A stretch of DNA of 64,000 nucleotides, from positions 2,685,501 through 2,749,500 of the forward strand of contig NZ_SSBQ01000002.1 of NCBI RefSeq assembly GCF_004795255.1, read 5' to 3'. A program made the position numbers and the translations under genes. Positions 2,204 through 17,265 of this stretch are shown here, in pieces (the stretch's first letter is position 1; every line of letters begins with the position of its first letter). Origin of the DNA: Streptomyces sp. RKND-216. GTDB taxonomy: Bacteria; Actinomycetota; Actinomycetes; Streptomycetales; Streptomycetaceae. The notes beneath the pieces are model-generated. The model worked only from the letters and a program-made list of their open reading frames with translations, did no database searches and was not told the DNA's origin.

Positions 2204-2274
2204 AGCGGGTTCCTCCTCTCGGGGCATGGCGGGCCGGGGCACCGGGCGCGGGGTGCCCCGGCCGGGGCGGTGGG

Positions 2275-2475: not shown

Positions 2476-2567
2476 GATGGGTTCTCCTTCTGATCTGTGG
2501 ATGGGAAGGGGCCGGACCGTCCGGGCAGCGGCGATGCTTGGCGGCTTGTGCGCTGCCCGGCGGCCGG

Positions 2568-2906: not shown

Positions 2907-2921
2907 GGCGGGTCCCTTCGT

Positions 2922-3116
2922 TCAGTCGTTGGTGCCGTTGACGATCTGCGTGCCGGTCTCGGCGCCGCCCTCGATGACCGGGGCGATGAAGGTGTCGGCC
3001 AGCAGGAAGCCGCCGAGGAGGAGGGTCACGACGAGCCAGGTCGGCGGGCGGAAGAGCTTGATGCCGAAGTAGCCGAAGACGGCCAGGAGCGCGACGAGCG
3101 GGATCTCTACGGACAT
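2922..3116 (-). CDS. Small two-helix membrane transfer protein
   Basis: A 64-residue protein, MSVEIPLVALLAVFGYFGIK..., with two predicted membrane helices (about residues 5-20 and 27-45) and a short polar tail. The ATG at 3116 follows AAAGGAGG at good spacing, so the longer upstream reading is not needed. It sits 15 bases upstream of spdD and is probably a spread-type membrane partner of it. No domain is recognised. Confidence 0.72.
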   Translation of the reverse strand: MSVEIPLVALLAVFGYFGIKLFRPPTWLVVTLLLGGFLLADTFIAPVIEGGAETGTQIVNGTND

Positions 3117-3130
3117 GGGTCGACCTCCTT

Positions 3131-3325
3131 TCAGCGGATGCGGCAGCGGTGGGTGCGGGCGGCGAGCTGGGCGGCGGAGCGGGTGCCGTAGTCGGCGGAC
3201 CAGCCGCAGCGCTCGGAGGTGCACACGGCTGCGTGGCGGGTCTGACCGGTGCGGCGGTCGCGGTGGGTGCCGATCTGCACCGGGCCGATGCGCTCGACGG
3301 AGTGGAAGAAGTCACGGGCAGGCAC
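3131..3325 (-). CDS. Mobile element transfer protein, short Cys-containing
   Basis: A 64-residue protein starting with GTG (VPARDFFHSVERIGPVQIGT) and a GGAG ribosome-binding site. It has Cys pairs in AAVCTSERCGWSADY and a final THRCRIR, a pattern seen in small 'mobile element transfer' proteins of Streptomyces integrative elements. It ends 14 bases before the small membrane gene and starts just after the DUF2637 gene, so it is within the transfer operon. The molecular function is unknown. Confidence 0.72.
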   Translation of the reverse strand: MPARDFFHSVERIGPVQIGTHRDRRTGQTRHAAVCTSERCGWSADYGTRSAAQLAARTHRCRIR

Positions 3326-3344
3326 GATCAGGTCTCCTCTCGGG

Positions 3345-4070
3345 TCAGGTGAGTTGAGCGGCGATGGCGTCGGCCATCGGCGCGGGGACGCCCAGGCGGG
3401 CGCGGAGGGTGTCGGTGTCCATCGGCGCCCCGGTGCGAGCGCGGTGGGCGTCGGCGAGCTTCCGGGCGTGGTCGACCAGCGCGGAGGGGACCGACGCCGC
3501 CGCCGGAGCCTGTCGGGGCTTCTCGACGGACTGCACGGAAACGGGTTCGGGCTCGAGTCGGGTGGCCGGGGGTGCCGGCGCTCCGGTCGGCTCCAGGGCG
3601 GCCGGGGCCGGGTCGGTTGCGGGTGCGGGCGCGGTTGATTCGGCTCGGTCGACGTTGAGCGCCTGGCACTCGTCCTCGTCTGCCGTCTGCTTGGCCGTGT
3701 CGTTCGGGGAGTGGACGAGGAGGGTGCCGCCGAGGAAGGCCAGTGCGGGCCATCCGGCGACGAGGATGCGCAGCCAGTCGGGCACGTCGCCCAGGTCGAG
3801 GAGGCCGGCGGTGGCCACGTTGGCGCCCAGGGAAGCAGCCAGGGCGATGAGGAACCAGGTCCACGCGGCCCCGGCCGGGGAGCCAACGGCTTGCAGGGCC
3901 CGCAGTCGGCGCCAAGCGGCGACGAGCAGCAGGTCCACGGAGATGGGGTAGGCCCAGGCCTTCCAGCCGTCTTGTCCGGCGGCTTCGGCGATGTCGTGGA
4001 GGTGAGCGAAGGACAGGGCACCGGCGATCACGGCTTGCACGAGCACGGCATCCACGCGAAGCGAGCGCAT
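3345..4070 (-). CDS. spdB: DUF2637 / SpdB-like membrane spread protein
   Basis: A 241-residue protein. The N-terminal half has about four hydrophobic helices (near residues 8-25, 42-55, 68-90 and 97-116), matching DUF2637 membrane proteins. A Pro/Ala-rich linker (about 135-190) leads to a C-terminal helical domain (ALVDHARKLADAHRARTG...) that resembles a small DNA-binding or oligomerisation helix bundle. SpdB-type proteins form membrane structures for intramycelial spread of Streptomyces elements together with TraB/TraSA. It lies directly downstream of traSA. Confidence 0.82.
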   Translation of the reverse strand: MRSLRVDAVLVQAVIAGALSFAHLHDIAEAAGQDGWKAWAYPISVDLLLVAAWRRLRALQAVGSPAGAAWTWFLIALAASLGANVATAGLLDLGDVPDWLRILVAGWPALAFLGGTLLVHSPNDTAKQTADEDECQALNVDRAESTAPAPATDPAPAALEPTGAPAPPATRLEPEPVSVQSVEKPRQAPAAASVPSALVDHARKLADAHRARTGAPMDTDTLRARLGVPAPMADAIAAQLT

Positions 4071-4154
4071 CGGGGTCCTCCTTCCAGGTCTTCGGGCATG
4101 GGTGGGGTAGGGACGTGGCGCGAGGCGGTCACGCCAACCGGTGTGCGGGGAAGG

Positions 4155-5507
4155 TCAAGCAGCCTTGGTCAGGTCCACGCGAGGCCGGGCGTCGGCCTCA
4201 TCAAGGGCGGGGCGCCAGGCGGCCAGTTCGGGGACCTCGGGGGTGAGGTCGGCGTGGCGGTTGCAGGCGTTGACGGCCTGCCGCAGCGTCGTGAACGGCG
4301 TACGGGTCAGCACCCAGCCGCCGGAGGAGTCACCGACCACGGCAGTTCCGGGCCGCTCGTTCGGGATCTGCACGGCCGCGAGCACGGCGTCGGGGGCGAT
4401 GTCGGCGAACGCCATCTTCGCCGAAGCTTCGTCGTTGACCCGGTGCGCGGTCCGGCCGGTCAGCTGGGAGCGCAGGAGGGTGATGCCGCCTCCGAGGTCG
4501 GAGCCGAACCGCTGACCGCAGATCTCGACGTAGATGCCAGCGGCGCGGCCGAGCTGGGCCAGCCGGACCAGGGCGGTAATGATGGCGTCGCGGCGCTTCT
4601 CCTCCGCCTTGCTGGCGAACAGGGCGAGTTCGGCGACCTCGTCCACCAGCACCACCACCGGGGTCGGCCGTAGCTTCTCCGGCAGGCCCCAGATGTCGGC
4701 GGTGATCTCCTCGTCCGGGGTGTCGGCGCTGATGCGCTGTTCCCGCCGGATCACCTCGTAGGTGGCCTCCATCCGGTCGAGGAGGGCTTCCAGCAGGCCG
4801 CGTGCGTCGTCGGGGTTGTCGGCCAGGGCGGAGAACCGGCGGGCGAGCGGGCCGAGTTCCACGCCGTTCTTGCAGTCGACGCCGACCAGGGCGACCGGCT
4901 GCGGGGCGAGGGCGGCGACCAGGCGGCGCTGGTAGACGGACTTGCCCGACTGCGTGGCGCCGATGTTCAGCGCGTGCGGGGTGGTGCGGTAGTCGCGGTA
5001 GTGCACGCTGCCGTCTTCCCGCAGCGCGACCGGAACCCGCAACGTACCCGCGTCGGTCTTCGCGGGCATCTGCACCCGCTTGAGCACGTCGTAGCCGGTC
5101 ATACGCAGCTCGACCACCCCGGCCTTGACCTCACGCGAGGTGACGCCCTGCATGCCGAAGGAGTGCCGCAACCGGTCCGAGGCAGCGGCGAAGTCGAAGG
5201 CGTCCTGACCCGGCCGCATCTTCAACCGCAGCACCAACCCCGTGCGGGTGACCTTCAGCGCTCGGATGCGCGGGACCCGAGAGGCCGGCACCTCGCTACG
5301 TGTCGCCCGAGCGAGCAGCAGCCGCAACCGCGACGGCGGGACCGTCAGCCCGCAGGCTTCCATGACCGAGGCGTACCGGAAGCGGAGCCGGATCACGGCG
5401 GCCAGGGCGCCGAAGGTGAGCCAGTACCAGGCCGGGCGGCGCCACCGCAGCAGCGCCGCCGTGCCCAGGATGACCACCAGCACGGTGATCGTCAGCGTCT
5501 CCCCCAC
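4155..5507 (-). CDS. traSA: FtsK/SpoIIIE-type conjugative DNA translocase TraSA
   Basis: A 450-residue hexameric ATPase that moves double-stranded element DNA between hyphae. Two membrane helices lie at about residues 5-22 and 27-42. Walker A is GATQSGKS (183-190) and Walker B is VVVLVDE (284-290), with FtsK-like sequence GQRFGSDLGGG downstream. The start is GTG, three bases after the previous gene's stop, with GAGGG upstream. It is shorter than some TraB proteins and has no clearly separate C-terminal winged-helix domain. Expression is probably controlled from the operator at 5871-5933. Confidence 0.95.
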   Translation of the reverse strand: MGETLTITVLVVILGTAALLRWRRPAWYWLTFGALAAVIRLRFRYASVMEACGLTVPPSRLRLLLARATRSEVPASRVPRIRALKVTRTGLVLRLKMRPGQDAFDFAAASDRLRHSFGMQGVTSREVKAGVVELRMTGYDVLKRVQMPAKTDAGTLRVPVALREDGSVHYRDYRTTPHALNIGATQSGKSVYQRRLVAALAPQPVALVGVDCKNGVELGPLARRFSALADNPDDARGLLEALLDRMEATYEVIRREQRISADTPDEEITADIWGLPEKLRPTPVVVLVDEVAELALFASKAEEKRRDAIITALVRLAQLGRAAGIYVEICGQRFGSDLGGGITLLRSQLTGRTAHRVNDEASAKMAFADIAPDAVLAAVQIPNERPGTAVVGDSSGGWVLTRTPFTTLRQAVNACNRHADLTPEVPELAAWRPALDEADARPRVDLTKAA

Positions 5508-5510
5508 CGA

Positions 5511-5849
5511 TCAGCCCTCCGACCCGGGAGCGACGAGGGCCACCGCTCGGAAGGCGATGCCGTGCCGCTTCTCACCGTTGAAGGTGTTCTCCCAGTCGCG
5601 TGCCTTGAGGCCGACGACCTTGACCGGCATGCCCAGGGTCAGTCCTTCGGGGACGCCCGTCTCCGGGATGCTCACGGTGTGGAGGTTGGCCTCTCCCTCG
5701 TCGGCGACGGTCAGACCGACGGTCATCATCTGGGCGCCGGTCTCCCGGTCGACCTGGACTTCGCCGGTCTCTCGGTTGATGACCTTCTTCTTGGGCTCGA
5801 CCGCCACGAAGACGACGGCGGTGGAGGTGTCGACCTTGAACGTGGGCAT
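5511..5849 (-). CDS. Conserved AICE protein upstream of tra
   Basis: A 112-residue soluble protein beginning MPTFKVDTSTAVVFVAVEPKKK. It is rich in beta-strand-type sequence (VSIPETGVPEGLTLGMPVKVVGLKARDW), suggesting an OB- or SH3-like fold, but no catalytic motif is seen. The ATG at 5849 has AAGGAG seven bases upstream and is preferred over an ATG at 5870. It is the first gene of the leftward transfer operon, directly downstream of the operator. Homologues are common in Streptomyces integrative elements with no known function. Confidence 0.8.
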   Translation of the reverse strand: MPTFKVDTSTAVVFVAVEPKKKVINRETGEVQVDRETGAQMMTVGLTVADEGEANLHTVSIPETGVPEGLTLGMPVKVVGLKARDWENTFNGEKRHGIAFRAVALVAPGSEG

Positions 5850-5870
5850 CCCGACTCCTTGGGGTTGCAC

Positions 5871-5933
5871 TTGACGTACTTAGTACGTCCTGACGTGGAT
5901 CCGAGAGTGCACCTGACGCACTAAGTATGTCAA
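5871..5933. promoter_or_regulatory. Divergent operator/promoter of the transfer operon and GntR gene
   Basis: Contains two related palindromes. GACGTACT-T-AGTACGTC (5873-5889) is perfect; GACGCACT-A-AGTATGTC (5915-5931) has two mismatches. A consensus -35 TTGACA for the leftward operon overlaps the second palindrome (5928-5933), and a TTGACG for the rightward direction overlaps the first (5871-5876). This is the expected binding site of the adjacent GntR repressor. Confidence 0.75.
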
Positions 5934-5996
5934 GTAGTCCTCGACGGCTGTCGCTCCGATGTGCTGGACTTGGTACGACAACCAAGAAGAGGTGCC

Positions 5997-6365
5997 ATGG
6001 CCGAGTTCAGGGGACAACCGGCGTATCTGCAGATCGCCGACCGGATCAAAGGGGAGATCCGGGACCAGAAGCTCAACCCGGGAGACAAGCTCCCTTCAGA
6101 GACGGAGCTGATGCAGGCTCACGACGTGTCCCGCACCGTGGCCCGGCAGGCAATCGCCCGTCTGCGGGAGGACGGGTACGCGATCTCTCACCAGGGGAAG
6201 GGCAGTTTCGTCGCTGCACCTGGTGAGGGGGGAGTGTCCCGCCGCAGCCCGGAGTACGAGGAGATCACCCAGCACCTGAACGAGGTTCACCGCGACGTGC
6301 GCCAGCTCGCCGACCGCATGGACCAGCTCGAAGAGCTCGTACGTCAGCAGTTGCCAAGGCCGTAG
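5997..6365 (+). CDS. Short GntR-family repressor, KorSA-like
   Basis: A 122-residue regulator starting MAEFRGQPAYLQIADRIKGE. Residues 1-75 form a complete GntR winged helix (LPSETELMQAHDVSRTVARQ, then the HQGKGSFVA wing). The rest is only a short heptad-like helix (EYEEITQHLNEVHRDVRQLADRMDQLEELV), probably a dimerising coiled coil. There is no ligand-binding domain. In pSAM2 the GntR protein KorSA represses transfer and its own gene; position and the facing palindromes suggest the same role. The ATG at 5997 has AAGAGG upstream. Confidence 0.88.
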   Translation: MAEFRGQPAYLQIADRIKGEIRDQKLNPGDKLPSETELMQAHDVSRTVARQAIARLREDGYAISHQGKGSFVAAPGEGGVSRRSPEYEEITQHLNEVHRDVRQLADRMDQLEELVRQQLPRP

Positions 6366-6578
6366 CCGCTGCCTCCGCACGCTGTGCCACCTCACGCACC
6401 TCCTCACTGATCTGCTCGATACGCCGCATCAGTTCCAACCGTTCGCTACTGGACAGCGCCACTGAGGGCCCCCGATGTCGCAAGGTCTCTCGGACGCCAC
6501 GAACGTACGACCGCACCGGAGTTGAACCCCGGAAAAACCTTCCGGGGTCCGTCGAAGAGGCAGGGGGACGCTCTTCCC

Positions 6579-7802
6579 ATGCGAGGAATGACGACGAACC
6601 TGACGATCGGTGAACGAGTCGCGTGGTACCGCCGGAGGCGCGGGCTGTCGCAAGAGGTCCTGGCCGGACTGGTCGGCCGCACGGTCGACTGGCTCAGCAA
6701 GGCCGAGAACGGACGTATCGAGCTGGACCGCCTGTCGGTCATCAAGTCCCTGGCCGACGCCCTGGACGTGGCGCTCGGCGACCTCATCGCGGAACCGACC
6801 CTCATGGACTGGACACGAGAGAGCGGTACGTCCACGGTGCCGGCACTTCGGTCCGCCCTGATGAACTACCGCCAGTTGACGCCCCTGCTCGGCGTCCCGA
6901 CCGAAGGCGAAGCCCCCGCACTCAACGAGCTCCGTACCAACGTCGCCGAGGTCTGGGACGCCTACCAGAACTCGAAGTACGGTTTGGCCACCCGCCGCCT
7001 GCCCCTACTGCTGGCCGACGCCCTGATCGCTGCCCAGACGTACCAGGGGAGCGACCGCGAGACCGCGCACGAGCTGACGGCCATGACCTACCAGGGCGCC
7101 GCCATGGTGCTGACCAAGCTTGGCGAGAACGACCTCGCCTGGATCGCGGCCGACCGAGGACTTTCGGCCGCCCAGCAGTCCGGCAACCCGGTCGTGACCG
7201 GCTCACTGTTCCGCTCCGTCGCCCACTGCCTGCTCTCCAGCGGACGATTCGACGCGGCAACGCAGTTGGTCGGCGACGCATCGGACTACCTTCGCCCCGG
7301 CCTAGAAGGTGCGAGCCCGGAGTATCTGTCGATCTACGGGACGCTCTTCCTCGCGGGTTCGATGGCAGCCGCACGAGCAGAGGACCGCTCGACAACCCGG
7401 GCCTTCCTTGATGCGGCTGACCATGCCGCACAGCGTCTCGGGCAGGACGCGAATCACATGTGGACCGCCTTCGGCCCCACGAACGTGGCCATTCACCGAG
7501 TGGCCACGGCGGGCGAGCTGGGCGACCTCCAGGTCGCACTGGACATGGGCCCGCAGATCGACACCAGCAGCCTGCCGACCGAGCGCCGCACCCGGCACAA
7601 CCTCGAAGTCGCCCGCGCACTCAGCTCGCGGAACCGAGTGGACGAGGCCCTGGCCCTGGTCCTCGAAGCGGAATCCTGGGCGCCCGAGCAGGTCCGCAGC
7701 CACTACCTCGCCCGCGAACTCGTCCTGTCCTGGGTCCGCAGCCAGCGGGGCCGGCCAAGCCGGCCGATGGCGGACCTGGCGATGCGACTGCATGTGGTCT
7801 GA
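6579..7802 (+). CDS. XRE-family regulator with TPR-like C-terminus
   Basis: A 407-residue protein. An XRE helix-turn-helix lies near the N-terminus (GERVAWYRRRRGLSQEVLAGLVGRT...LSKAENGR). The remaining 300 residues are helical repeats resembling TPRs, as in many Streptomyces pleiotropic regulators. The ATG at 6579 has GGGGGA nine bases upstream; the ATG at 6588 would place AGGA too close. It occupies the position of the activator gene in pSAM2-type elements, between the GntR repressor and the Nudix gene, so it may activate replication or transfer genes or sense a host signal. That role is inferred. Confidence 0.82.
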   Translation: MRGMTTNLTIGERVAWYRRRRGLSQEVLAGLVGRTVDWLSKAENGRIELDRLSVIKSLADALDVALGDLIAEPTLMDWTRESGTSTVPALRSALMNYRQLTPLLGVPTEGEAPALNELRTNVAEVWDAYQNSKYGLATRRLPLLLADALIAAQTYQGSDRETAHELTAMTYQGAAMVLTKLGENDLAWIAADRGLSAAQQSGNPVVTGSLFRSVAHCLLSSGRFDAATQLVGDASDYLRPGLEGASPEYLSIYGTLFLAGSMAAARAEDRSTTRAFLDAADHAAQRLGQDANHMWTAFGPTNVAIHRVATAGELGDLQVALDMGPQIDTSSLPTERRTRHNLEVARALSSRNRVDEALALVLEAESWAPEQVRSHYLARELVLSWVRSQRGRPSRPMADLAMRLHVV

Positions 7803-7821
7803 GGTAGGTACGCTCGACCGC

Positions 7822-8298
7822 ATGGCCGCGAACGAGCACGAAGCGAAGATGGCGCACCCTCGCATGGCGGCGGGTGCGCTCTTCTTTGACGCCGCCGGAC
7901 GAGTCCTCATGGTCGAGCCGTCGTACAAGGACTACTGGGAGATCCCCGGAGGCTACGTCGAGACCGGCGAGTCCCCCCGGCAGGCGTGCGTGCGCGAGGT
8001 CCGCGAAGAGCTGGGCATCGCCCCGCCCGTCGGACGGTTGCTGGCCATCGACTGGGCGCCCAACGACAAGGAGGGCGACAAGGTGCTCTACCTCTTCGAC
8101 GGCGGGCAGCTCAGCACCGAAGCCGAAGCGCAGATCCGCTTGCAGCCGGACGAGCTCTCGTCCTACGCCTACGTCACCAGCGCCGAGGTAGCCCAGCGGA
8201 CCATTCCACGGCTAGCACGACGCATCCAGGCAGCCATGGCAGCACGCGACGAAGCCGCACCGATCTACCTGGAGCACGGCCAAGCCCCAGCGGCATAG
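7822..8298 (+). CDS. Nudix hydrolase, Pif-like
   Basis: A 158-residue Nudix protein. The complete Nudix box is visible as GYVETGE...REVREELGI (about residues 42-64), with the metal-binding Glu residues present, so it is probably active on a nucleoside diphosphate-linked substrate. In pSAM2 the Nudix protein Pif blocks transfer into cells already carrying the element; the same position here makes a Pif role likely but unproven. The ATG at 7822 fits the family start. The GAGG upstream is rather distant, and an in-frame ATG at 7792 inside the XRE gene is an alternative. Confidence 0.88.
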   Translation: MAANEHEAKMAHPRMAAGALFFDAAGRVLMVEPSYKDYWEIPGGYVETGESPRQACVREVREELGIAPPVGRLLAIDWAPNDKEGDKVLYLFDGGQLSTEAEAQIRLQPDELSSYAYVTSAEVAQRTIPRLARRIQAAMAARDEAAPIYLEHGQAPAA

Positions 8299-8351
8299 CC
8301 GGTGAGTAGAAACCTTCTTTACGGGTTCAAGGGCTCGCTCCGCTCGCCGCG

Positions 8352-8374
8352 CGGCCCGGCTCGCCGCCGGGCCG
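8352..8374. terminator. GC-rich hairpin after the Nudix gene
   Basis: A perfect 9-bp stem, CGGCCCGGC with a five-base loop and GCCGGGCCG, followed by further GC-rich self-complementary sequence to about 8430. It may end the repressor-Nudix transcript. It may also be part of a single-strand origin or transfer locus. Confidence 0.5.
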
Positions 8375-8473
8375 ACGCTCCTGTCTCCGCCCCGCTCCGG
8401 CCCGGCCGCCGGCCCGCGCGCGGCCAGAGCCACAGAAGAGAGGGAGCATCGTGGCTGGGGCGGTCGGCTCCAC

Positions 8474-8615
8474 GGCTTTAGGCAGCCACCATGGGGCGAT
8501 CCTCGAAGATCGGGGGCCCACTTCGGGCTTTTGCGGGCAGGCTAGGTGCTGCCCGAGTCGCGGCAAGCTTACGGGCCCCCGATCTCTCACCCCATGGCAG
8601 CTCCAGCCCAAAGCC
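8474..8615. repeat. Long imperfect inverted repeat in AICE non-coding region
   Basis: The left arm (8474-8519) includes CCATGGGG and AGATCGGGGGCCC. The right arm (8573-8615) includes GGGCCCCCGATCT and CCCCATGG, with only a short insertion between matching blocks; outer CGGCTTT/AAAGCCG also pair. A second small hairpin (GGGCAG/CTGCCC) sits in the loop. No gene is seen here. A replication origin, transfer locus or structured RNA are all possible. Confidence 0.6.
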
Positions 8616-8842
8616 GCTCCACCGACCACGAGTTGTGGCGTGGGCGAGGGCGCGGCGGACAGCTCTACTACCGGCCAGTGAGCCCGGGTCGCGTGCTACG
8701 ATGCCGCACACCATCACACACACCGATGGCCCGCACGTCAACGGTCCGGCATGACCACGTACGGGCTATCGGCCTACAGGATCGGACACGAATGGCATCG
8801 CGTAAGTACCCTGCAATCACTTGTACACAGGAGAGTAGGTGG

Positions 8843-8861
8843 TTGACACGCGGCGTGTCAA
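8843..8861. promoter_or_regulatory. Palindrome TTGACACG-CGG-CGTGTCAA
   Basis: A perfect 8-bp inverted repeat with a 3-bp spacer inside otherwise non-coding AICE DNA (8299-9118). It has the form of a repressor operator or an origin-type nick/binding site. A weak open frame (TTG at 8843 or GTG at 8855 to the stop at 8990) with a hydrophobic start passes through it, and AGGAG lies just upstream, but I do not call a gene. Confidence 0.5.
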
Positions 8862-9031
8862 TTGTGGTCGGGTTGGTGGCGCCGCTCACGCTCACAGCAA
8901 CCCTGGCCCCAGCACGGCTAGGCGCACCGACGACCCCTACCCAGGGCACCACCGTGACGGTCGTCTGCACCATGGCCGGACCCGTCGTGTAGCGCCCCCG
9001 ACACCCCAGCCGTAGGCGATCAACACAGACG

Positions 9032-9069
9032 CATGGGGATGCGTCGCCCACGACCGAGGCATCCCCATG
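9032..9069. terminator. Hairpin between non-coding region and cargo gene
   Basis: An 11-bp perfect stem, CATGGGGATGC with GCATCCCCATG, around a 16-base loop. It lies just past the 3' end of the leftward gene at 9119-9706 and would serve as its terminator. Confidence 0.55.
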
Positions 9070-9118
9070 TGAGCGCAGCGCAGACGCCCAACGCGCCTGA
9101 TCTGCACGCAGCCCGAGC

Positions 9119-9706
9119 TCATCGCCGTCCAGGGCGCAGCGCCTCGTGATGGTGCCAGATCAGGTACCTGTCCTCCTTGCGAAGCTCAGCGGAGCCCCAT
9201 TCAACACGCAGCACGCCTTCCTCCATCGAGCACGCGTAGGCAACCAGCACAAGGCCCACGTCCTCCGGCAACATTTCGAGTCCCAACCTCGGCTCGTCCT
9301 CCTTGACCTCGTCCAGACCAAGGTCGAGTTCTTGTTGCATGGGCTCCGGGCCATGGCGCCGTATCAGCTCTGCTCGAAAGCCCGTAGCTCGACGCAAGCG
9401 AGCAGCCGTCACCGGTACGTCCTTCTTGGCGTACCGGAACGGGAAGATCACATTGCCGCAGACGATCACCACAGTTCGCCCCTGGAGGCGCACCGGGTTT
9501 CCGTACTGCTCCAGGCCTGCTGCCAACTCCTCATACTGCACGGCGTGAAGTCCGTGGCCGTACGCCTCAAGGGTCTGTGTGTGCACCCCTTCTTGGCCAG
9601 TACGAGCCCGCTCGTGAGCCCGTGCGAGGCAAGCCAGCACAGCGTCTGCCACCTCCCCCGCGACCTCGCCGAAGGTCCCTCGCGCCCATCGAGTTGCCGA
9701 CCCCAT
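9119..9706 (-). CDS. Unknown AICE cargo protein, divergent from restriction-like gene
   Basis: A 195-residue soluble protein starting MGSATRWARGTFGEVAGEVA with GGAAGGGGAG upstream. I recognise no family. The N-terminal half is helical; the middle has a strand-like stretch (RTVVIVCGNVIFPFRYAKKD); the C-terminal part is acidic (QELDLGLDEVKEDEPRLGLE) and ends in DRYLIWHHHEALRPGRR. It diverges from the nuclease gene at 9932 across a 225-base gap, in the variable cargo slot next to the attachment site. A protective or regulatory partner of the nuclease is possible, from position only. Confidence 0.72.
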   Translation of the reverse strand: MGSATRWARGTFGEVAGEVADAVLACLARAHERARTGQEGVHTQTLEAYGHGLHAVQYEELAAGLEQYGNPVRLQGRTVVIVCGNVIFPFRYAKKDVPVTAARLRRATGFRAELIRRHGPEPMQQELDLGLDEVKEDEPRLGLEMLPEDVGLVLVAYACSMEEGVLRVEWGSAELRKEDRYLIWHHHEALRPGRR

Positions 9707-9931
9707 GCACTCCCCTTCCGACAGTGCCGCCGGCGCGCCCGGCCCCCTCAGGAAGACGCCTTGCATGTGTGGCACACAAGTGAGCACGCAGCGCACGACA
9801 GGGCGCACATGTTCATCTTGGGCCTGAATCGGATATCCAATTCCAGCATCCGATTCTGATGTGCGATGATCCTCTCTCAGTTGCCACAGGTCACCACGGC
9901 TCAGGAGCCGCCGGACCAACAGGAGGAGCCC

Positions 9932-10870
9932 ATGACCGAGACGACCGACCCGGCACCCGAGTGGACGCTCAAGCCAGGCGACACGATCGAACGCAAGCAG
10001 CTGCACGCCAAGTTCGGGGGGAGGACGCAGGGCGGCATCGGCCCCTCAGCCAGGACCCCGAACGTCTTCGTGTTCACCGACCCGGTGGCCGGCGAGAAGC
10101 ACGGGTACTACGACGACTGGATGCCGGACGGCCGCTTCCACTACAGCGGCGAAGGCCAGTACGGGGATCAGCGGATGCTCTCCGGCAACGTCAGCATCCT
10201 CAACCACGAAGTTGAGGGCCGCGCACTGCGCGTATTCCAAGGCGCCCGCGGCACCGTCACCTACCGCGGCGAGTTCGTCGTGGACCAGGAGGACCCCTGG
10301 TACGAAGCCGACGCCCCTGAGACGAACGACGGCCCCCTGCGCAAGGTGATCGTGTTCCGGTTGCGGCCCGTCGACGCCGATCCCAGGCGGCCTGCAACGA
10401 AGCTCGGTCGTCTCCTTGACAGTGCCCCGGAGTCCGTGGACGAACTGCCCATTGAGCGCAACGAGACGGAGAAGTCGTTCGTAAACCCCAACCGTGAACC
10501 CTACGAGGCGGAGCGAAAAGAGGCCAAGCTGGTCAAGGCGTTCGCCGACTACCTCGCGAGCAAGGGTTACTCCTCGTGCCGGCACCGCATGCTGCCGCCC
10601 GGTGAGAGTCGGCCCCTGTTCACCGACCTGTACTGCCGAGAGCTCGGTCTACTCGTTGAGGGCAAGGGGAGCGTCACGCGCGAGAACATCCGTATGGCGC
10701 TTGGTCAGTTGGCTGATTACAGCCGGTTTGTGGAGCACACGACGCGGGCGATCCTGGTGCCCTCCAAGCCTCGTGCCGACCTTCTCGCCCTGGCGGAGTC
10801 GCAGGGGTGCGCGGTGCTTTGGCCTGAAGGGAGGGACTTCGCAAGCACGGTTCCTACGGCTCTCCCGTAG
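9932..10870 (+). CDS. Probable modification-dependent restriction endonuclease (SRA-like + PD-(D/E)XK)
   Basis: A 312-residue protein with a perfect AGGAGG site before the ATG at 9932. Residues about 25-150 resemble an SRA-type modified-base reader: GYYDDWMPDGRFHYSGEGQ, GDQRM, GN, then GRALRVFQG and YRGEFVV. Residues about 190-312 carry a PD-(D/E)XK nuclease core: helix with Glu (EAERKEAKLVKAFADYL), Asp 232 in FTDL, and Glu 243/Lys 245 in LLVEGKGS, followed by RENIRMALGQLADYSRF. By analogy with SRA-nuclease enzymes such as MspJI it should cut DNA bearing modified bases. No methyltransferase is nearby, which fits type IV restriction. Confidence 0.72.
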   Translation: MTETTDPAPEWTLKPGDTIERKQLHAKFGGRTQGGIGPSARTPNVFVFTDPVAGEKHGYYDDWMPDGRFHYSGEGQYGDQRMLSGNVSILNHEVEGRALRVFQGARGTVTYRGEFVVDQEDPWYEADAPETNDGPLRKVIVFRLRPVDADPRRPATKLGRLLDSAPESVDELPIERNETEKSFVNPNREPYEAERKEAKLVKAFADYLASKGYSSCRHRMLPPGESRPLFTDLYCRELGLLVEGKGSVTRENIRMALGQLADYSRFVEHTTRAILVPSKPRADLLALAESQGCAVLWPEGRDFASTVPTALP

Positions 10871-11071
10871 AGACTGACCGCACGGGAGATGCGCGGCCGA
10901 CATCCACAATCGACATCAACAGGCGTGCACACCGACGCATCGAGGCACCCCCCAGAGACACCGAGTTCACCGGCAGAACAGCCCCGGAGCGATACCCCGA
11001 TCGAGCTCCTAAAGCGGTGGTCGATGCGAGTACGGTGTCGCCTCGCTGTGTCCGGGTGGCATGATCGCGAC

Positions 11072-11356
11072 ATGGCAAGTGAGCGACTGCCCGTAGGTTG
11101 GACTCTTGCAGCGATCCGTGATGTCTCGGGAGACCAGGAGGCGGTCCTCCTCAGCGTCGATCGTGTAGCGGTGTGGCGTGGAGGGCCGGCGGACGGCGAG
11201 CTGATACGGCCCGAGATGGTGATCAGGTTTCACGGCCTGTGCCTGGTGAAGCCGATTGACGACGACGATTGGTACATGGGCAGTCTCAACGACGACGGCA
11301 GCGTTGACTGCTGTAGTGCTTACCCAGACTTCCGCGAGGCCTTGCGAGGTCTGTAG
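11072..11356 (+). CDS. Small unknown AICE cargo protein
   Basis: A 94-residue protein, MASERLPVGWTLAAIRDVSG..., rich in acidic residues (KPIDDDDWYMGSLNDDGSVDC) with no recognised domain. A CATGAT about eight bases upstream could be a -10 box, which would make the mRNA nearly leaderless. It is the last gene before the integrase arm sites and attachment site. Confidence 0.6.
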   Translation: MASERLPVGWTLAAIRDVSGDQEAVLLSVDRVAVWRGGPADGELIRPEMVIRFHGLCLVKPIDDDDWYMGSLNDDGSVDCCSAYPDFREALRGL

Positions 11357-11366
11357 CCCCAGAGCC

Positions 11367-11385
11367 GCACCAGATGCGCACCAGA
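11367..11385. other. Candidate integrase arm-type site near attachment site 1
   Basis: GCACCAGA occurs twice, exactly 11 bp apart (11367-11374 and 11378-11385). The pair is 106 bp from the attachment core. The same arrangement (TGCCAGA twice, 11 bp apart) lies a near-identical distance from attachment site 2. Confidence 0.55.
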
Positions 11386-11490
11386 AGGGGCGGTAAACGG
11401 CGGTTAAGGCGGGGCACGTGGGCGCGAGCGATGACAGCGGCATCCCGGCGTCCTCGCAGCTCAGCAGCCCAACACGTCCGATCTGCACGG

Positions 11491-11542
11491 TGATTCCCAA
11501 GCTTATAGCGCGGGTTCGATTCCCGTCGCCCGCTCCAACGAC
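11491..11542 (+). other. Attachment site 1: 3' half of tRNA-Gly(CCC)
   Basis: 52 bp from TGATTCCCAAGCTT to CCAACGAC. It contains the CCC anticodon with flanking loop bases (TTCCCAA), a T-arm (GCGGGTTCGATTCCCGT) and acceptor strand CGCCCGC plus TCCA, as in tRNA-Gly(CCC). The 5' half of a tRNA is absent, so this is a displaced 3' fragment, i.e. the right end of the AICE. A terminator-like hairpin (AGGCCCAGG / CCTGGGCC) follows at 11545-11580. Confidence 0.88.
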
Positions 11543-12141
11543 TCAGGCCCAGGTCAGGGACATGATCCCCAGCCTGGGCCCTTGCGTTGTCCAGACCCGT
11601 CGCGGGGAGGAATCCGCAGGAGGCGCTGACCCCTGACCATGACCCGCTGAAGGTCCGGGCCGTCATGTACGAGCCGGCCCTCCCGCTGCACCGGGGGCGG
11701 CGCCGAGACTACGCGGGAGCAGTACGCCGCGCCGGCTGATCCGGCCGGCATGGAGAACGTGATGCCGCAGGTCCGGTTCAGCCGTCGGGGTCGCCGAAGT
11801 GGGGTCGCGCTGGTGCGGACCAGGCGGGTGCGGTGAGCAGGTGCAGGGCGCGCTGACGGATCAGGGATATCTGCACCCGTTATCTTCTTCGCGGTCCTGC
11901 AACGGGACCGTTGGCCTCCGGGCCCGGCATGACTGTTGCCCCCTGTCGCTCGTATGACCTGGGGGGTGGGTGTCACCGGGCCCGAGGGGTGCCGTCGGAG
12001 ACGCTGATAAGAGGACCGGCCGTCGCCTGAGCTGGTGCAGCACCAGGTCGTCTGCGGGCGACAGGTCTGCATAACGTGGATGCGCGCGTGCGGCCCCCGA
12101 AGCCCGAGGCCGGCATGCCATCGACGACATGTGGGGGCACG
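11543..12141. other. Non-coding left end of IS110-like element (possible bridge RNA region)
   Basis: About 600 bp with no convincing gene. The part nearest the transposase has self-complementary GC-rich blocks, such as GGGCCCGG near 11927 and CACCGGGCCCGAGG near 11975. IS110-family elements encode a structured guide (bridge) RNA upstream of the recombinase, so such an RNA is expected in about 11850-12130. The element's exact left boundary cannot be read. Confidence 0.4.
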
Positions 12142-12750
12142 GTGACCAGCATCGACGAAGTGGGCGTCTTCCTCGGCCTGGACGTGGGCAAGACCGCCCA
12201 CCACGGTCACGGCCTGACCCCGTCCGGGAAGAAGGTCTTCGACAAGCCCCTGCCGAACAGCGAACCGAAACTGCGGGCCGTCCTGGACAAACTGACGGCC
12301 AAGTTCGGCAGCGTCCTGGTGATCGTGGACCAGCCCGCCTCCATCGGCGCCCTGCCCCTGACCGTGGCCCGGGACGCGGGCTGCCAGGTCGCCTACCTGC
12401 CCGGCCTGGCCATGCGCCGGATCGCCGACCCCTACCCCGGCGAGGCCAAGACCGACGCCAAGGACGCCGCCGTCATCGCCGACGCCGCCCGCACCATGCC
12501 CCACACCCTGCGCACGCTGGACGCGGGGGATGAGACCACGGCCGAACTGACCCTCCTGGTCGGCTTCGATCAGGACCTGGCCGCCGAGGCCACCCGCACC
12601 TCCAACCGCATCCGCGGCCTGCTCACCCAGTTCCACCCGTCGCTGGAACGTGTCCTGGGCCCCCGCCTGGACCACCCCGCCGTCACCTGGCTCCTGGAGC
12701 GCTACGGCTCCCCACAGGCTCTGCGCAAAGCCGGCCGGAGCAAGCTCAGC
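12142..12750 (+). pseudogene. IS110-family transposase, C-terminally truncated
   Basis: Starts with GTG (VTSIDEVGVFLGLDVGKTAH) and matches the N-terminal RuvC-like DEDD domain of IS110 transposases: LGLDVGK, IVDQPAS and the DAKDAAVIADAARTMPHTLR block. The long helical linker is present up to LRKAGRSKL (about residue 205). Homology then stops, and the reading frame runs a few codons into the end of the convergent membrane gene. The C-terminal serine-containing domain is lost, so the protein should be inactive. Confidence 0.85.
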
Positions 12751-12754
12751 GGGT

Positions 12755-13333
12755 TCACTGTCGGCGGTACGACATCGCGATCAGACCGGCAGTGAAACAG
12801 ACCGCCGCTACGACTGCCGCCACAACGCTGGTGGACTCCATCAGGAGAACCGCCCACGGGTACGGCCTCTGGTCTCCCGCCAGGCCGGTGACAATGCTGA
12901 ACATCACAAACATGGTCGCCGCCGCGCCACCGGCGAACGGGCCGTACCAGCTGTTTACGAGGAGAGCGAGGCCCAGCACCATGACGGTGTTTCGTCCGCC
13001 CGCCACCGCTGTCGGCATGTCCAGGAACACCCCGAGTGCGAACCCCAGTCCCGCCGCGCTCACCCCCAGAAGCAGGAGAGCCAGCCGGTCAACGACGGTG
13101 ACCATGCGCGCCGCTGTGGTTTCGGTGGCGATGAGGCGCCGACTCATGCAGTACATCGTCGGGATGCACAGGATGAGCGGGACGAAGTTCATCAGCTTGA
13201 CCGAGAAGGTGCCCCGCGCAGCGATCTGGGGAACCTTCGCCACGTCGTCACGAACGAGCACAAGGAGGAGCGTCCAGGCGCATAGGGCCACAGGCAGCAG
13301 CCAGATTCTTCGTGCGCGCGCCCAGAGGGTCAC
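12755..13333 (-). CDS. Membrane protein, third gene of ABC operon
   Basis: A 192-residue protein with about five hydrophobic helices (near residues 12-28, 45-62, 82-105, 112-150 and 165-185) and no recognised domain. It starts with an ATG overlapping the stop of the upstream gene (13330-13333), so the two are coupled. It is probably an extra membrane subunit of the ABC transporter encoded just upstream. Its 3' end abuts the truncated IS110, which may have removed flanking DNA. Confidence 0.75.
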   Translation of the reverse strand: MTLWARARRIWLLPVALCAWTLLLVLVRDDVAKVPQIAARGTFSVKLMNFVPLILCIPTMYCMSRRLIATETTAARMVTVVDRLALLLLGVSAAGLGFALGVFLDMPTAVAGGRNTVMVLGLALLVNSWYGPFAGGAAATMFVMFSIVTGLAGDQRPYPWAVLLMESTSVVAAVVAAVCFTAGLIAMSYRRQ

Positions 13334-14676
13334 CGGTCCACGCCCGGTGCCATGTCCGCCGGATCCTCCAACCGCGGCCCCAGCGCTCGGCCCCGCTCGT
13401 TCTCGGCCTTGGCCCCCGCCCTGGCCTTCTCGTGGACCTGCACGTCGCAGGACTCGAGGTAACTCAACTGCTGCTTGAACCAGGCGTACTGCTTCGCCGT
13501 GGAGAGGCTGCGCACCCAGCGTGCCCGGTACACACCGCTGGGTCCGTAGCTGCGGGCGGCCTCGGCCTCCGACATCCCAACCGTCAGGCCGATCCAGGCG
13601 GAAGCGGCTCCGCGCCCCGGATAAACGTAGTCATCAGGAAGTTCCGGGCAGTGGTGGACCCCTGTCGGGACCAAGGCGCTGCCGTAGACCGTCCGGCTGC
13701 GGTGGCGGGTCACCGGCTTCTGGAGGAAGATTCGCCAGGTGTCGCGTGCCAGCGGTAGATCCTCCGAGACGAAGGCCAGCTTCCGGGGTGGGGTGAACCC
13801 GACCTCTCGCATGCGGGGCAGCGCGTGTTGAGCGGAGCGGTGCAACGCGGGAATGTCGTCGGCGAACTCGCCGGGCACACAGATCACCGGGGCAGTTCGC
13901 TCACACGTCGTTGCCCAAGTGCGGGGAACTGTGGGGTCGGCGTAGCGCGGGGCGTCACTCACCAGCGGATACGACGCCCCGAAGCCCGCGAGGACGCAGC
14001 AGGCCATGGCGGCGGCGCGCAGCGCCGGACGTGAGAGCAGGCTGAGCGTGACAAGACCGAGCAGCAGCCCGAGAGCCAGGATCGCCGGTGCCATGAGATA
14101 GGCGCGGTCCACGACATCCGTGTAGGTCGGAGTGCTCATGTCGAATCCGGATATCGCCCGCAGCCATGGGATACCCAGCGTGTAGGCGACGAAGACCCAC
14201 AGCGCCGTGATCACCACCGCGAGGGGGCGGGCGATAACGGGCGGAAAAGAGAGTCCGAGGAAGAAGCCGACTGCTACTGCACTGAAGGGGATCGCAAGAC
14301 TTCGGACCATTGGAACGGTGTCGTGGAGCCCTGGTGCGGGGCCTCCCAGATAGCTGATCACCAACAGGAAGGACGTCACCCAGCTGATGATCACCAGGGC
14401 CAGGGTGGGGGCCATCGCATCGACAAGTATTCGCAGCAGGTGGCGGCTGGACGGGGCGGCTGTGATCCGAGCCTGGCGAAGCCTCCCTGCGTCCCATGCG
14501 GCCACCAAGGCGATTCCCAGCGCGGCGACCCTCAGGGCCACCGAGACCACGACGAGGGAACCCTCACCGGTGAACGGCGTGGGCTGGTAGGCGGTGAAGT
14601 ATATGGCCAGAGCCACCGTCGGGGCTCCGAAACCGATGACGGCCGAGTGTCGAGCGAAGGGGAATCGGTTCACCAC
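13330..14676 (-). CDS. ABC transporter permease-like protein with extracytoplasmic domain
   Basis: A 448-residue protein. The N-terminal 240 residues hold about six membrane helices. The C-terminal 200 residues are soluble and contain paired Cys (CERTAPVICVPG) and aromatic-rich sequence (STAKQYAWFKQQLSYLESCD). The start overlaps the ATPase gene by seven bases, which makes it the likely permease of that ABC system. I cannot assign a substrate. A similar architecture occurs in actinobacterial ABC permeases with large C-terminal domains. Confidence 0.75.
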   Translation of the reverse strand: MVNRFPFARHSAVIGFGAPTVALAIYFTAYQPTPFTGEGSLVVVSVALRVAALGIALVAAWDAGRLRQARITAAPSSRHLLRILVDAMAPTLALVIISWVTSFLLVISYLGGPAPGLHDTVPMVRSLAIPFSAVAVGFFLGLSFPPVIARPLAVVITALWVFVAYTLGIPWLRAISGFDMSTPTYTDVVDRAYLMAPAILALGLLLGLVTLSLLSRPALRAAAMACCVLAGFGASYPLVSDAPRYADPTVPRTWATTCERTAPVICVPGEFADDIPALHRSAQHALPRMREVGFTPPRKLAFVSEDLPLARDTWRIFLQKPVTRHRSRTVYGSALVPTGVHHCPELPDDYVYPGRGAASAWIGLTVGMSEAEAARSYGPSGVYRARWVRSLSTAKQYAWFKQQLSYLESCDVQVHEKARAGAKAENERGRALGPRLEDPADMAPGVDR

Positions 14677-15428
14677 GAGATCGCCCCATCGATTTCGGTG
14701 AAGGCCTGATAAGCGGAGGTGGCCCGCTGCTCGTCGGATGCCGCCGTCGCACTCGCGTGGGAAAGGAAGTCCACCACCGTTCCCGAGAAGCGCACCTGAC
14801 CGCCCAACAGAACCACAACCGAGTCGTACGAGTTGGCGATGTCCGAGGTGTCATGGGTGGAGAGAACGATGTGCACCTCCTTCGACAGATCGGCGAGAAT
14901 CTGGTGGAAGACCTGCCGCTGCCGGGGATCCATGCCCGCTGTCGGCTCATCGAGGAGAAGGACCTCTGCGTCATGCACGAGGGCCTGCGCCACTGCGACG
15001 CGCCGCTGCTGCCCCCCGGAGAGTTCCTGGACCCTGTCATCCGCCCGATCGGCCAACTCCACGCGTTCCAGGGCCTGGAGAGCCTCACGCCACGCCTCGC
15101 GCCGGGACATCCCCTTGAGCCAACCGGAATACGCGACCTGATCCCGGGCCGTGAGCCCCGGCACCTGCTCCACCTGCTGAGGCATCCATGCCACACGTCT
15201 ACGGAACGCGGGCAGCGCGCGACGCCGGCCGGTGCTCAGGTCGCCGTAGGTGACGGAACCGGAATCGGGGCGCAGCGCAGATGCGCACAAGCCCAACAGG
15301 GTACTCTTTCCCGCTCCATTCGGCCCCAGGAGCACGGTCCGCCCGGGCGGAAGCGTATAGCTGAGATCACGCAGCACCGGGCGTCTACGCCGATAGGAGA
15401 AGGAACACTCGGACATCGAAATGGCCAT
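14670..15428 (-). CDS. ABC transporter ATP-binding protein
   Basis: A 252-residue ATPase starting MAISMSECSFSYRRRRPVLR. Walker A GPNGAGKST (about 36-44), Q-loop MPQQ, signature LSGGQQRR (about 136-143) and Walker B VLLLDEPT followed by the H-loop STHD are all present, so it should be active. The form resembles ATPases of ABC-2 type exporters. It is the first gene of a coupled three-gene operon (ATPase, permease, membrane protein), downstream of the small secreted protein gene but separated from it by a hairpin. Confidence 0.92.
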   Translation of the reverse strand: MAISMSECSFSYRRRRPVLRDLSYTLPPGRTVLLGPNGAGKSTLLGLCASALRPDSGSVTYGDLSTGRRRALPAFRRRVAWMPQQVEQVPGLTARDQVAYSGWLKGMSRREAWREALQALERVELADRADDRVQELSGGQQRRVAVAQALVHDAEVLLLDEPTAGMDPRQRQVFHQILADLSKEVHIVLSTHDTSDIANSYDSVVVLLGGQVRFSGTVVDFLSHASATAASDEQRATSAYQAFTEIDGAISW

Positions 15429-15483
15429 GCAAAACCTTCGTATTGGAGCGTGGGGGTGCCTCTCTCTGTTTCACCAAGAGGCA

Positions 15484-15512
15484 GGTGGAGACCTGCGTTT
15501 CAGGTCTCCACC
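15484..15512. terminator. Terminator hairpin after secreted protein gene
   Basis: A perfect 12-bp stem, GGTGGAGACCTG with CAGGTCTCCACC and a five-base loop, 25 bases past the stop of the small secreted protein gene. It has no clear T-run, as is usual in Streptomyces. Confidence 0.7.
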
Positions 15513-15536
15513 CAGGAATTCAGGATCCAGGGCCAT

Positions 15537-15968
15537 CTAGAACGACATACGGGTCTCTTCGACGTTGATCGTCGGGCCGACTTGCGAACTGCCATCGATC
15601 TTGGTGAGCCTGAAGTAGTAGTCGTGGCCATCGACTCCGGCACCCCACTCGCCGGACGACGTTCCACCGTTGAAGCATGCCGTGTACTTCTTTTCGTCGT
15701 ATCCGGTGTCGGGTCCGATGACAGCACGACGCAGCTGAACAGTCACACTTGTCCCCGACCACGTATGGCATCCGGTGAAGTCCACCTTGTTCGGTCCGGT
15801 ACGTCCGTCATCCGTCAGTGGATGCGAGGTGAAACCGGCGACTCCACCCTCTATGTACGAGTACTTCACGACAGCCCAGGCGGGGCTCGCGAGGGCCAAT
15901 GGGAGGGTCGAGAGGGAAGCAACCAAACCGATCCGCTTCCAGGTGTTACGGGTTCCGAACTTGCGCAC
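15537..15968 (-). CDS. Small secreted protein, copy A (full length)
   Basis: A 143-residue protein starting with GTG (VRKFGTRNTWKRIGLVASLS) and GAGAGG upstream. Residues 1-32 are a classic Sec signal peptide ending SPAWA. The mature part, about 111 residues, is polar with exactly two Cys (FTGCHTW and TACFNGG), which could form one disulfide, and many Gly/Thr/Asp residues. No family is recognised. It lies next to an ABC exporter operon but the signal peptide indicates Sec secretion. A nearly identical but C-terminally truncated copy is at 60871. Confidence 0.82.
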   Translation of the reverse strand: MRKFGTRNTWKRIGLVASLSTLPLALASPAWAVVKYSYIEGGVAGFTSHPLTDDGRTGPNKVDFTGCHTWSGTSVTVQLRRAVIGPDTGYDEKKYTACFNGGTSSGEWGAGVDGHDYYFRLTKIDGSSQVGPTINVEETRMSF

Positions 15969-16296
15969 GGTTGTACCTCTCGTTCGGAATCTCGGGCATG
16001 CGTGTGCATCACGGAGTGAATTGAGTGAAGGCCGCATTGACGGGCATCCCCTGCGCGGGACTTGACTGTACATCAACTGGGGCTACAGGGTGTTTGCCAA
16101 CGTCAGTTTGCGCAGGTCAGGTCCCCAGGGTGAGGACGGCCTGGACGAGGCTGGTGATGCGGGTGGTGGAGCGTCGCAGCTTGCGCAGGAGGCGCCAGGT
16201 CTTGAGGGTGGCCATGGCCTGCTCGACGAGGGCGCGGATCTTCGCGTGTGAGCGGTCCACGGCTTACTGACCTGCGGAGAGCGTCTCCCAGCGGCC
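15607..16296 (-). repeat. Dispersed inverted duplication, copy A
   Basis: About 690 bp shared with 60545-61236 in opposite orientation. It covers the end of an IS5-like transposase, a short spacer and most of the small secreted protein gene. Over the shared protein the copies differ at only a handful of residues (for example KYSYIEGG versus KFSYIDDG), so the duplication is fairly recent. Confidence 0.85.
16086..16296 (-). pseudogene. IS5-family transposase 3' remnant, copy A
   Basis: Encodes the last part of an IS5-like DDE transposase (AVDRSHAKIRALVEQAMATL...WRLLRKLRCSTTRITSLV) on the minus strand. It is broken: the codon before AVDRS is TAA where the copy at 60.6 kb has CAA, and the region upstream of it no longer matches. 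It ends with the IS right-end sequence GTTTGCCAACGTCAGTTTGC read on the plus strand. Confidence 0.75.
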
Positions 16297-16504
16297 CTAT
16301 CAGGGAAGGGGTAGATCCTGTGACGAGCTCTACGCGACCGAACAACCGGTGATGCCACCACCGCGTACGGGCCTGAAGCCGAACCGGTCAGGGCCCCGCC
16401 TCAGTTTCCGGCACTGCAAAAGGTTCCTGAGCGGTCCATGCAATTGGCAAGTGCAACGGAAGTATGGACCAGTCGCCCGCAATACGAGCCCGACCGGCCC
16501 TCAC

Positions 16505-16523
16505 ATGCCAGATGCGTGCCAGA
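16505..16523. other. Candidate integrase arm-type site near attachment site 2
   Basis: TGCCAGA occurs twice, 11 bp apart (16506-16512 and 16517-16523), about 107 bp before attachment site 2. A further similar pair (GTGCCAT and GTGCCAC, 11 bp apart) lies to the right of the site at 16738-16755. Confidence 0.5.
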
Positions 16524-16629
16524 CGGGGCGGTCAGAGGAGGTCAATGGCGGACAGCGCGACGGGCCGGCGCCTCGGCTGCACGGGCGGTTGTTGCAGGTC
16601 AGCGACCCGGGCGCCCGCCTGCCACCCGT

Positions 16630-16681
16630 GATTCCCAAGCTTATAGCGCGGGTTCGATTCCCGTCGCCCGCTCCAACGACG
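16630..16681 (+). other. Attachment site 2: 3' half of tRNA-Gly(CCC)
   Basis: A 52-bp copy identical to 11491-11542, again with no tRNA 5' half. Together the two mark a 5.1-kb unit lying in tandem with the AICE. The intact tRNA should be left of the window. Confidence 0.88.
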
Positions 16682-16683
16682 AA

Positions 16684-16708
16684 GGCCCAGGTCACATACC
16701 TGGGCCTG
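16684..16708 (+). terminator. tRNA-type terminator hairpin
   Basis: A perfect 10-bp stem AGGCCCAGGT/ACCTGGGCCT with a five-base loop, two bases past the attachment core. It is likely the original terminator of the tRNA-Gly gene, now separated from its 5' half. Confidence 0.7.
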
Positions 16709-16857
16709 TTCGACGTCTAGACCAAATCTGCGGCACGTGCCATTCGCGTGCCACAAGGGCCCTGATTCACATGGGGGTTCACGCAACGCAGAACCTTCAT
16801 CGCCCTGATGCCCGTTCGTCTTGCATGCCGAGATGTCTTACGAGGCGGTGCTCACCG

Positions 16858-17220: not shown

Positions 17221-17229
17221 ACCTCCATT

Positions 17230-17244: not shown

Positions 17245-17265
17245 CTCCTTGCGGTAGCGGAGAAG

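What the first reader, a model, noticed from the sequence alone, without database searches (positions are those of the whole stretch)
11491..16681. Two identical tRNA-Gly(CCC) 3'-half attachment sites bound an integrase-less unit in tandem with an AICE
A 52-bp sequence is repeated exactly at 11491-11542 and 16630-16681. Each copy is a tRNA-Gly 3' half without a 5' half. The 5.1 kb between them has no integrase, rep or tra genes but does have cargo (ABC operon, secreted protein, IS remnants). This is the structure of a cis-mobilizable element parked beside a functional AICE, which could mobilise it or be excised together with it as a 16.6-kb composite.
Basis: partly seen in the sequence, partly recalled or inferred. 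Interest (0 to 1): 0.8.

Follow-up and report, generated by a model that had tools for sequence, protein, structure and literature searches.

The report
Decayed passenger element beside an AICE
Next to a complete self-transmissible element sitting in a glycine tRNA gene of a Streptomyces relative lies a 5-kb stretch that has lost its own movers but kept matching end sequences, so it could travel, if at all, only as a passenger of its neighbour; it is an instructive example of a known kind of arrangement.

Summary
The repeat is real: 53 bp, exact, at 11490-11542 (B) and 16628-16680 (C). The predicted intact tRNA-Gly(CCC) exists just left of the window, followed by a pSAM2-type AICE (int, xis, RepSA, FtsK). 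No int, rep or tra was found between B and C.

New evidence that C is a genuine element end: a paired repeat (YRCC-N7-YRCC) that marks the AICE's own ends occurs three times in the 5.6-Mb genome, once beside each core, and lies 126 bp upstream of both B and C. Such pairs sit at fixed places beside most of the cores read in 34 Streptomyces genomes.

The unit is 'one-armed'. Its right arm survives; its left arm, which in all 8 complete AICEs examined lies inside the 3' end of int, is gone. Stand-alone excision (5,138 bp) is therefore unlikely. The plausible route is a 17,275-bp composite with the AICE, and even there the arm types differ (CACC, TGCC). The ABC cargo is a separate module, found in four other genomes away from tRNA-Gly(CCC) cores.

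Verdict: a decayed CIME in tandem with an AICE, at a hotspot with two or more cores in 267 of 392 genomes. New member of a known kind; mobility untested.

The parts
1..633 (-). N-terminal part of the tyrosine integrase gene; the gene runs left to window -536, and its 3' end holds the left arm pair at -524..-507
   Evidence: PF00589 36.9 bits (cut-off 27.1); arm place; whole ORF is L005 12464-13633
633..893 (-). excisionase (xis)
   Evidence: TIGR01764 58.5 bits (cut-off 28.8); HTH_17
839..2242 (-). replication initiator RepSA
   Evidence: PF20199 491 bits; NF041486 547 bits, under its cut-off of 700
3345..4070 (-). DUF2637 protein of the AICE
   Evidence: PF10935 86 bits
4155..5507 (-). FtsK/SpoIIIE-type translocase (TraB-like transfer protein)
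   Evidence: PF01580 133 bits
5511..5870 (-). SCO3933-family regulatory protein
   Evidence: NF051478 143.8 bits (cut-off 80)
11368..11385 (+). right arm pair of the AICE, CACC type
   Evidence: 126 bp upstream of core B
11490..11542 (+). core B: right end of the AICE and left end of the unit
   Evidence: exact 53-bp repeat
11543..11597 (+). remnant of the unit's left end: resembles the AICE's left end (95% over the 104-bp stretch 11494-11597 that includes the core) and stops just before the place where int would begin; no arm pair in 11543-11850
12139..12795 (+). IS110 transposase fragment (N-terminal domain only), running into the ABC block at 12758
   Evidence: PF01548 168.8 bits; NF033542 98.4 bits, under its cut-off of 140
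12758..16077 (-). 3.3-kb module: secreted 143-aa protein (15537-15968), ABC ATPase (14670-15428), DUF7224 permease (13330-14676), second membrane protein (12755-13333, its end altered at the junction)
16081..16305 (-). transposase-end fragment, 94% identical to the end of a DDE_Tnp_4 insertion sequence at 60536-60758
   Evidence: the fragment itself has no Pfam match
16506..16523 (+). right arm pair of the unit, TGCC type
   Evidence: 126 bp upstream of core C
16628..16680 (+). core C: right end of the unit
   Evidence: exact 53-bp repeat
16738..16752 (+). left-arm-like pair right of core C at +65, TGCC type: trace of a further element or of the site's older flank
   Evidence: similar flanks in many genomes

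Best explanation
The stretch 11543-16680 is the relic of an older integrative element of the same site, now a cis-mobilizable-type element (CIME). Inferred history: an element integrated into tRNA-Gly(CCC); a deletion took its integrase together with the left arm that lies in the integrase gene's 3' end; insertion sequences and a 3.3-kb ABC/secreted-protein module filled the rest; later a complete AICE integrated at the tRNA end, leaving tRNA - AICE - B - unit - C. Predicted mechanics: Int and Xis of the AICE pair the tRNA-side site (left arm) with B (right arm) to free a 12,137-bp AICE, and may at lower rate pair it with C (right arm) to free a 17,275-bp composite carrying the unit. B x C (5,138 bp) has no left arm and should fail. 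Shown: anatomy, arms, homology of ends, gene content. Inferred: history, excision, transfer.
For: Intact tRNA and three cores. Complete AICE gene set. Arm pattern three times in 5.6 Mb, all at the cores. Right ends of AICE and unit alike, 71 of 150 ungapped positions, reached by 0 of 19,901 random pairs from the window (maximum 70). Left flank of the unit 95% identical to the AICE's left end. In 77 units read at this site, int-less units keep the right arm as often as units with int (41 of 58 against 14 of 19, p = 1) but the left arm much less (21 of 58 against 16 of 19, p = 0.0004). In 8 of 8 complete AICEs the left arm lies inside the int reading frame. In G177 a remnant of the same AICE family, with a piece of int and the right end including the arm, sits at the same tRNA: decay of this family seen in a close relative.
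Against: No read or PCR data on circles. The arm score was devised after looking at the arms of units with int, so their own high scores are partly built in. 21 of 58 int-less units do keep a left arm, so losing int does not always cost the arm. The arm types of AICE and unit differ, which speaks against efficient composite excision; left and right arms agreed in 8 of 8 complete AICEs. That arm sites are needed for excision is taken from lambda-type integrases, not tested for this family. The int profile may miss distant integrases.
Confidence: 0.77

Rival explanations
1. A dead fossil: the unit has the geometry of a CIME but is never moved, because its left arm is gone and its right arm is not recognised by the resident integrase.
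For: Left arm absent. Arm type TGCC at C, CACC at the AICE. Left and right arm types agree in 8 of 8 complete AICEs, as expected if each integrase reads its own variant. The contents are largely IS debris and an imported module.
Against: Core C is identical to the AICE's core over 53 bp, the right arm pair is unbroken and correctly placed, and the pair differs from the AICE's by only two bases per repeat.
Confidence: 0.4
2. The AICE and the unit arrived together as one composite, so the tandem was acquired in a single transfer and not built at this site.
For: All three cores are identical; transfers of ICE-CIME composites are reported (PMC5704250, passages). G177, the nearest relative seen, has other contents at this tRNA.
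Confidence: 0.2
3. The unit is a stand-alone passenger that a resident integrase moves in trans, like a cassette.
For: Discrete int-less units are shared between species at this site, some exactly from core to core; 14 of 58 int-less units keep both arms, down to 910 bp.
Against: This unit has only one arm. For 12 of 15 shared pairs compared, unit identity does not exceed flank identity by 3 points or more, which suits vertical descent.
Confidence: 0.07
4. Core C is a chance or gene-conversion copy of the core and not an element end.
For: A 53-bp copy alone could be made by conversion.
Against: The arm pair at the same 126-bp distance and the similarity of the 150 bp upstream are not explained by copying the core.
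Confidence: 0.03

Closest known systems
CIME beside an AICE: XSAM1 next to pSAM2 in Streptomyces ambofaciens ATCC 23877 (PMC4891641, whole text)
   Same: An element without its own conjugation genes lies immediately beside a RepSA/TraSA-type AICE.
   Different: XSAM1 is 42 kb; here 5.1 kb at another tRNA, with one arm missing and IS-ridden contents.
Tandem AICEs Fean5518/Fean5534 and the three-repeat element Fean6303 of Frankia (PMC3218068, passages)
   Same: Three direct repeats at one tRNA; single and composite circles were detected there.
   Different: Both Frankia tandem partners encode integrases; here one partner has none. Excision is untested here.
Accretion and decay of AICEs in a Streptomyces population (PMC9513070, passages)
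   Same: Stacked AICEs and remnants at one tRNA, with later cis mobilisation proposed.
   Different: The passages concern tRNA-Arg; no arm-level analysis was seen in the passages shown.
Toxicogenic regions TR1 (CIME) and TR2 (ICE) of Streptomyces scabiei (PMC8369830, passages)
   Same: A CIME that needs the adjacent ICE for transfer.
   Different: Different site (aviX1), different integrase, proven mobility. The primary papers cited there were not seen.
ssrA genomic islands of Dehalococcoides (PMC3146451, passages)
   Same: Many tandem islands at one RNA gene; 15 islands without an integration module, called possible CIMEs.
   Different: Serine recombinase and tmRNA gene; another phylum.

Membership tests
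CIME (cis-mobilizable element; definition from PMC5704250, passages) | has lost integration genes | tested here: met
   No integrase by Pfam, NCBIfam or iterative profile
CIME (cis-mobilizable element; definition from PMC5704250, passages) | has lost transfer genes | tested here: met
   No FtsK-type or Rep protein found
CIME (cis-mobilizable element; definition from PMC5704250, passages) | retains attL and attR | tested here: inconclusive
   Both cores are exact and the right arm is present; the left arm is missing
CIME (cis-mobilizable element; definition from PMC5704250, passages) | tandem with an ICE-type element sharing the att sequence | tested here: met
   Core identical in tRNA, B and C
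CIME (cis-mobilizable element; definition from PMC5704250, passages) | is mobilised in cis | not testable with these tools
   Needs circle junctions or mating
AICE (pSAM2 type), for the neighbour at -643..11542 | int, xis, rep and FtsK-type tra between direct repeats at a tRNA 3' end | tested here: met
AICE (pSAM2 type), for the neighbour at -643..11542 | excises and transfers | not testable with these tools
   No reads or cultures
IME | encodes its own integrase | tested here: not met

The most novel reading that the evidence does not exclude
Because one arm of attP lies inside the 3' end of int in this family, deleting int usually makes an element one-armed and so dependent on a neighbour in cis; the minority of int-less units that keep both arms (14 of 58, as short as 910 bp) would then be minimal passengers that any matching resident integrase could move in trans, making tRNA-Gly(CCC) of Streptomyces a genus-wide array site with integrase-less cassettes.
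Probability: 0.15. Interest if true: 0.7.

Novelty: new member of a known kind. Interest (0 to 1): 0.38.

Why it matters
It documents, with arm-level detail, how an AICE decays into a passenger: the integrase gene and one set of its presumed binding sites overlap, so both tend to go together. That gives a sequence test, beyond matching cores, for whether an integrase-less island can still be moved on its own, only with a neighbour, or not at all. The tRNA-Gly(CCC) arrays offer many cases to test it on.

Tried and rejected
Rejected: chance repeat (53 bp exact plus arms); prophage or integron cassette (the resident Int matches NCBIfam's Xer/integron-integrase model at only 31.8 bits, cut-off 220); a freely reshuffling cassette array as the general rule (12 of 15 shared unit pairs are no more than 3 points more alike than the chromosomal flank; the exceptions are G159/G019, 93-94 against 88, G005/G019, 97 against 87, and G025/G039, 90 against 87).

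Led nowhere: the joined empty-site query found no relative with both flanks together; no clear native right-hand neighbour of the tRNA was found, only shared DNA with G177 from window 30036 on and a Spo0M gene (25767-26756) that lies some kilobases to the right of the tRNA in a few relatives but between cores in G177. A structure model of the secreted protein from five close sequences was unusable (mean pLDDT 33), so no fold search was made and the cargo's function stays open. A first arm pattern was mistyped and gave no match; the corrected one is. A first core scan had an off-by-one and found nothing; one search replaces it.

Limits: the arrays were chosen partly because they had many cores, so 58 of 77 int-less is not a genus rate. 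Of 43 stretches read, 8 had a single core and gave no unit. The Pfam check of int-less units used 127 reading frames picked by codon composition from 49 of the 52 int-less units outside G000, G177 and G236; the integrase family was not among the 25 families shown of 123, so a rare match cannot be excluded. L135, counted as complete, has its int reading frame in two pieces. The total of cores per genome was copied by hand from the table.

Full report
Observation. B (11490-11542) and C (16628-16680) are identical over 53 bp. A third copy lies in an intact tRNA-Gly(CCC) left of the window, at window -673..-600, with the core starting at -643. A core pattern with up to two mismatches occurs three times in the own genome.

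The neighbour. From the tRNA to B lies a pSAM2-type AICE: tyrosine integrase (window -536..633, L005 12464-13633), excisionase, RepSA, a DUF2637 protein, an FtsK-type translocase and an SCO3933-family regulator. The genes are unbroken as read; activity is not shown. Several other frames of the AICE had no family match.

The unit. Between B and C there is an IS110 N-terminal fragment, a 3.3-kb module (secreted protein, ABC ATPase, DUF7224 permease, second membrane protein), a transposase-end fragment, and short end pieces. No integrase, Rep or Tra was found. The module is 97% identical over 3,282 bp in G177, 95% over 3,321 bp in G236, 91% in Streptomyces sp. A1277 and 89% in Streptomyces sp. 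AC1-42W. In G177 it lies on another contig than the tRNA-Gly(CCC), in G236 about 1.6 Mb from it; in the other two no core is seen within the 6 kb fetched on each side. G177's contig has the length of KI547042.1, Streptomycetaceae bacterium MP113-05, so these are probably one genome; near its module two other tRNA-like T-loops were seen. The module is thus not tied to this att site.

Ends. The AICE carries a paired repeat, two CACC-type motifs 11 bp apart, at both ends. A pattern covering these and the TGCC variant, with one mismatch allowed, hits the whole genome three times: -524 (inside int), 11368, and 16506. The last lies 126 bp upstream of core C, exactly as 11368 lies upstream of B. The pattern was written with all three in view, so its selectivity is a description; the equal spacing and the similarity of the 150 bp upstream of B and C (71 of 150; 0 of 19,901 random pairs as high) are the stronger points. 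The unit's left flank matches the AICE's left end at 95% over 104 bp including the core and stops just before int would begin; no arm pair scoring 9 or more of 11 exists in 11543-11850.

The site in the genus. Of 392 genomes, 391 have the core, 267 have two or more copies, 139 three or more and 75 four or more; the backward control pattern gave none in the rows shown. Copies need not all be in tandem. I read 43 stretches; 35 of them, from 34 genomes, gave 77 core-to-core units, 19 with an integrase and 58 without. The arm pair lies at about +65 after the core and about -126 before the next. Units with int have the left arm in 16 of 19 and the right in 14 of 19; int-less units in 21 of 58 and 41 of 58 (left p = 0.0004, right p = 1; a random 24-bp window reaches this score in 1.7%). 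In 8 of 8 complete AICEs the left arm is inside the int reading frame, and left and right arm types agree in 8 of 8. Integrases are commoner in the tRNA-proximal unit (11 of 28) than in others (8 of 49), p = 0.031, as stacking with decay would give.

Shared units. Several int-less units recur in other species, some from core to core. For 15 such pairs the unit is more alike than the flanking chromosomal gene region by 3 points or more in only 3. Vertical descent with younger insertions at the tRNA end explains most; independent movement remains possible for some.

A decayed sister. In G177 the same tRNA is followed by two further cores, and before the last one lies a piece of the AICE family's int (92% to window -603..-59), a 172-bp piece at 97%, and the right end with its arm. 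The left core of that remnant is cut. This is the kind of intermediate the decay model needs.

Right of C. A left-arm-like pair stands at 16738-16752, and C with its right flank resembles core flanks in many genomes. An arsenic gene group follows (ArsR, ArsO-like, Acr3). DNA shared with G177 in order begins at about 30036. Whether 16681-30035 is a third decayed layer or old flank is open.

Mechanism. In lambda-type systems integrase bridges core and arm sites (PMC4880445 and PMC4111918, passages). By analogy, A x B and A x C have one left and one right arm each; B x C lacks a left arm. So the unit should move only as a composite. The mismatch of arm types lowers this. That both the integrase gene and an arm go together when int is deleted was not met in two literature searches of which I saw listings only; that is no proof of novelty.

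Known precedents. CIMEs are defined as elements that lost integration and transfer genes but kept attL and attR, arising by decay and accretion (PMC5704250, passages). XSAM1 beside pSAM2 (PMC4891641, whole text), Frankia tandems (PMC3218068, passages), Streptomyces accretion (PMC9513070, passages), S. scabiei TR1/TR2 (PMC8369830, passages) and Dehalococcoides ssrA islands (PMC3146451, passages) show the same principle. The case is a new member of a known kind.

Noticed in passing
window 16858-23292: Arsenic gene group right of core C: ArsR-type regulator, ArsO-like monooxygenase (219 bits, cut-off 425), another flavoprotein, and an Acr3 arsenite efflux transporter (428 bits, cut-off 283).
   Followed up: partly
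window 12758-16077 and loci L099, L103, L097, L094, L079, L080, L089: A small secreted protein recurs next to DUF7224-type ABC permeases in several Streptomyces genomes; a secreted factor with its own transporter is possible, function unknown.
   Followed up: partly
window 60536-61245: Second, shortened copy of the secreted-protein gene beside the end of a DDE_Tnp_4 insertion sequence, the same pairing as at the right end of the unit.
   Followed up: partly
L121, L126, L129 and other arrays at tRNA-Gly(CCC): 13 of 58 int-less units are 1.5 kb or shorter; 14 of 58 keep both arms, the shortest 910 bp in L129.
   Followed up: partly
int-less units of the arrays (127 reading frames): Cargo includes PIN domains (7 of 127), RHS-repeat proteins (3) and Shedu SduA C-terminal domains (2): toxins and defence genes at the hotspot.
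   Followed up: no
cores in G000 and G177: All three own cores read TTATAG where all three G177 cores read TCAGAG, although core C and G177's second core have similar right flanks: the cores within a genome seem to change together.
   Followed up: no
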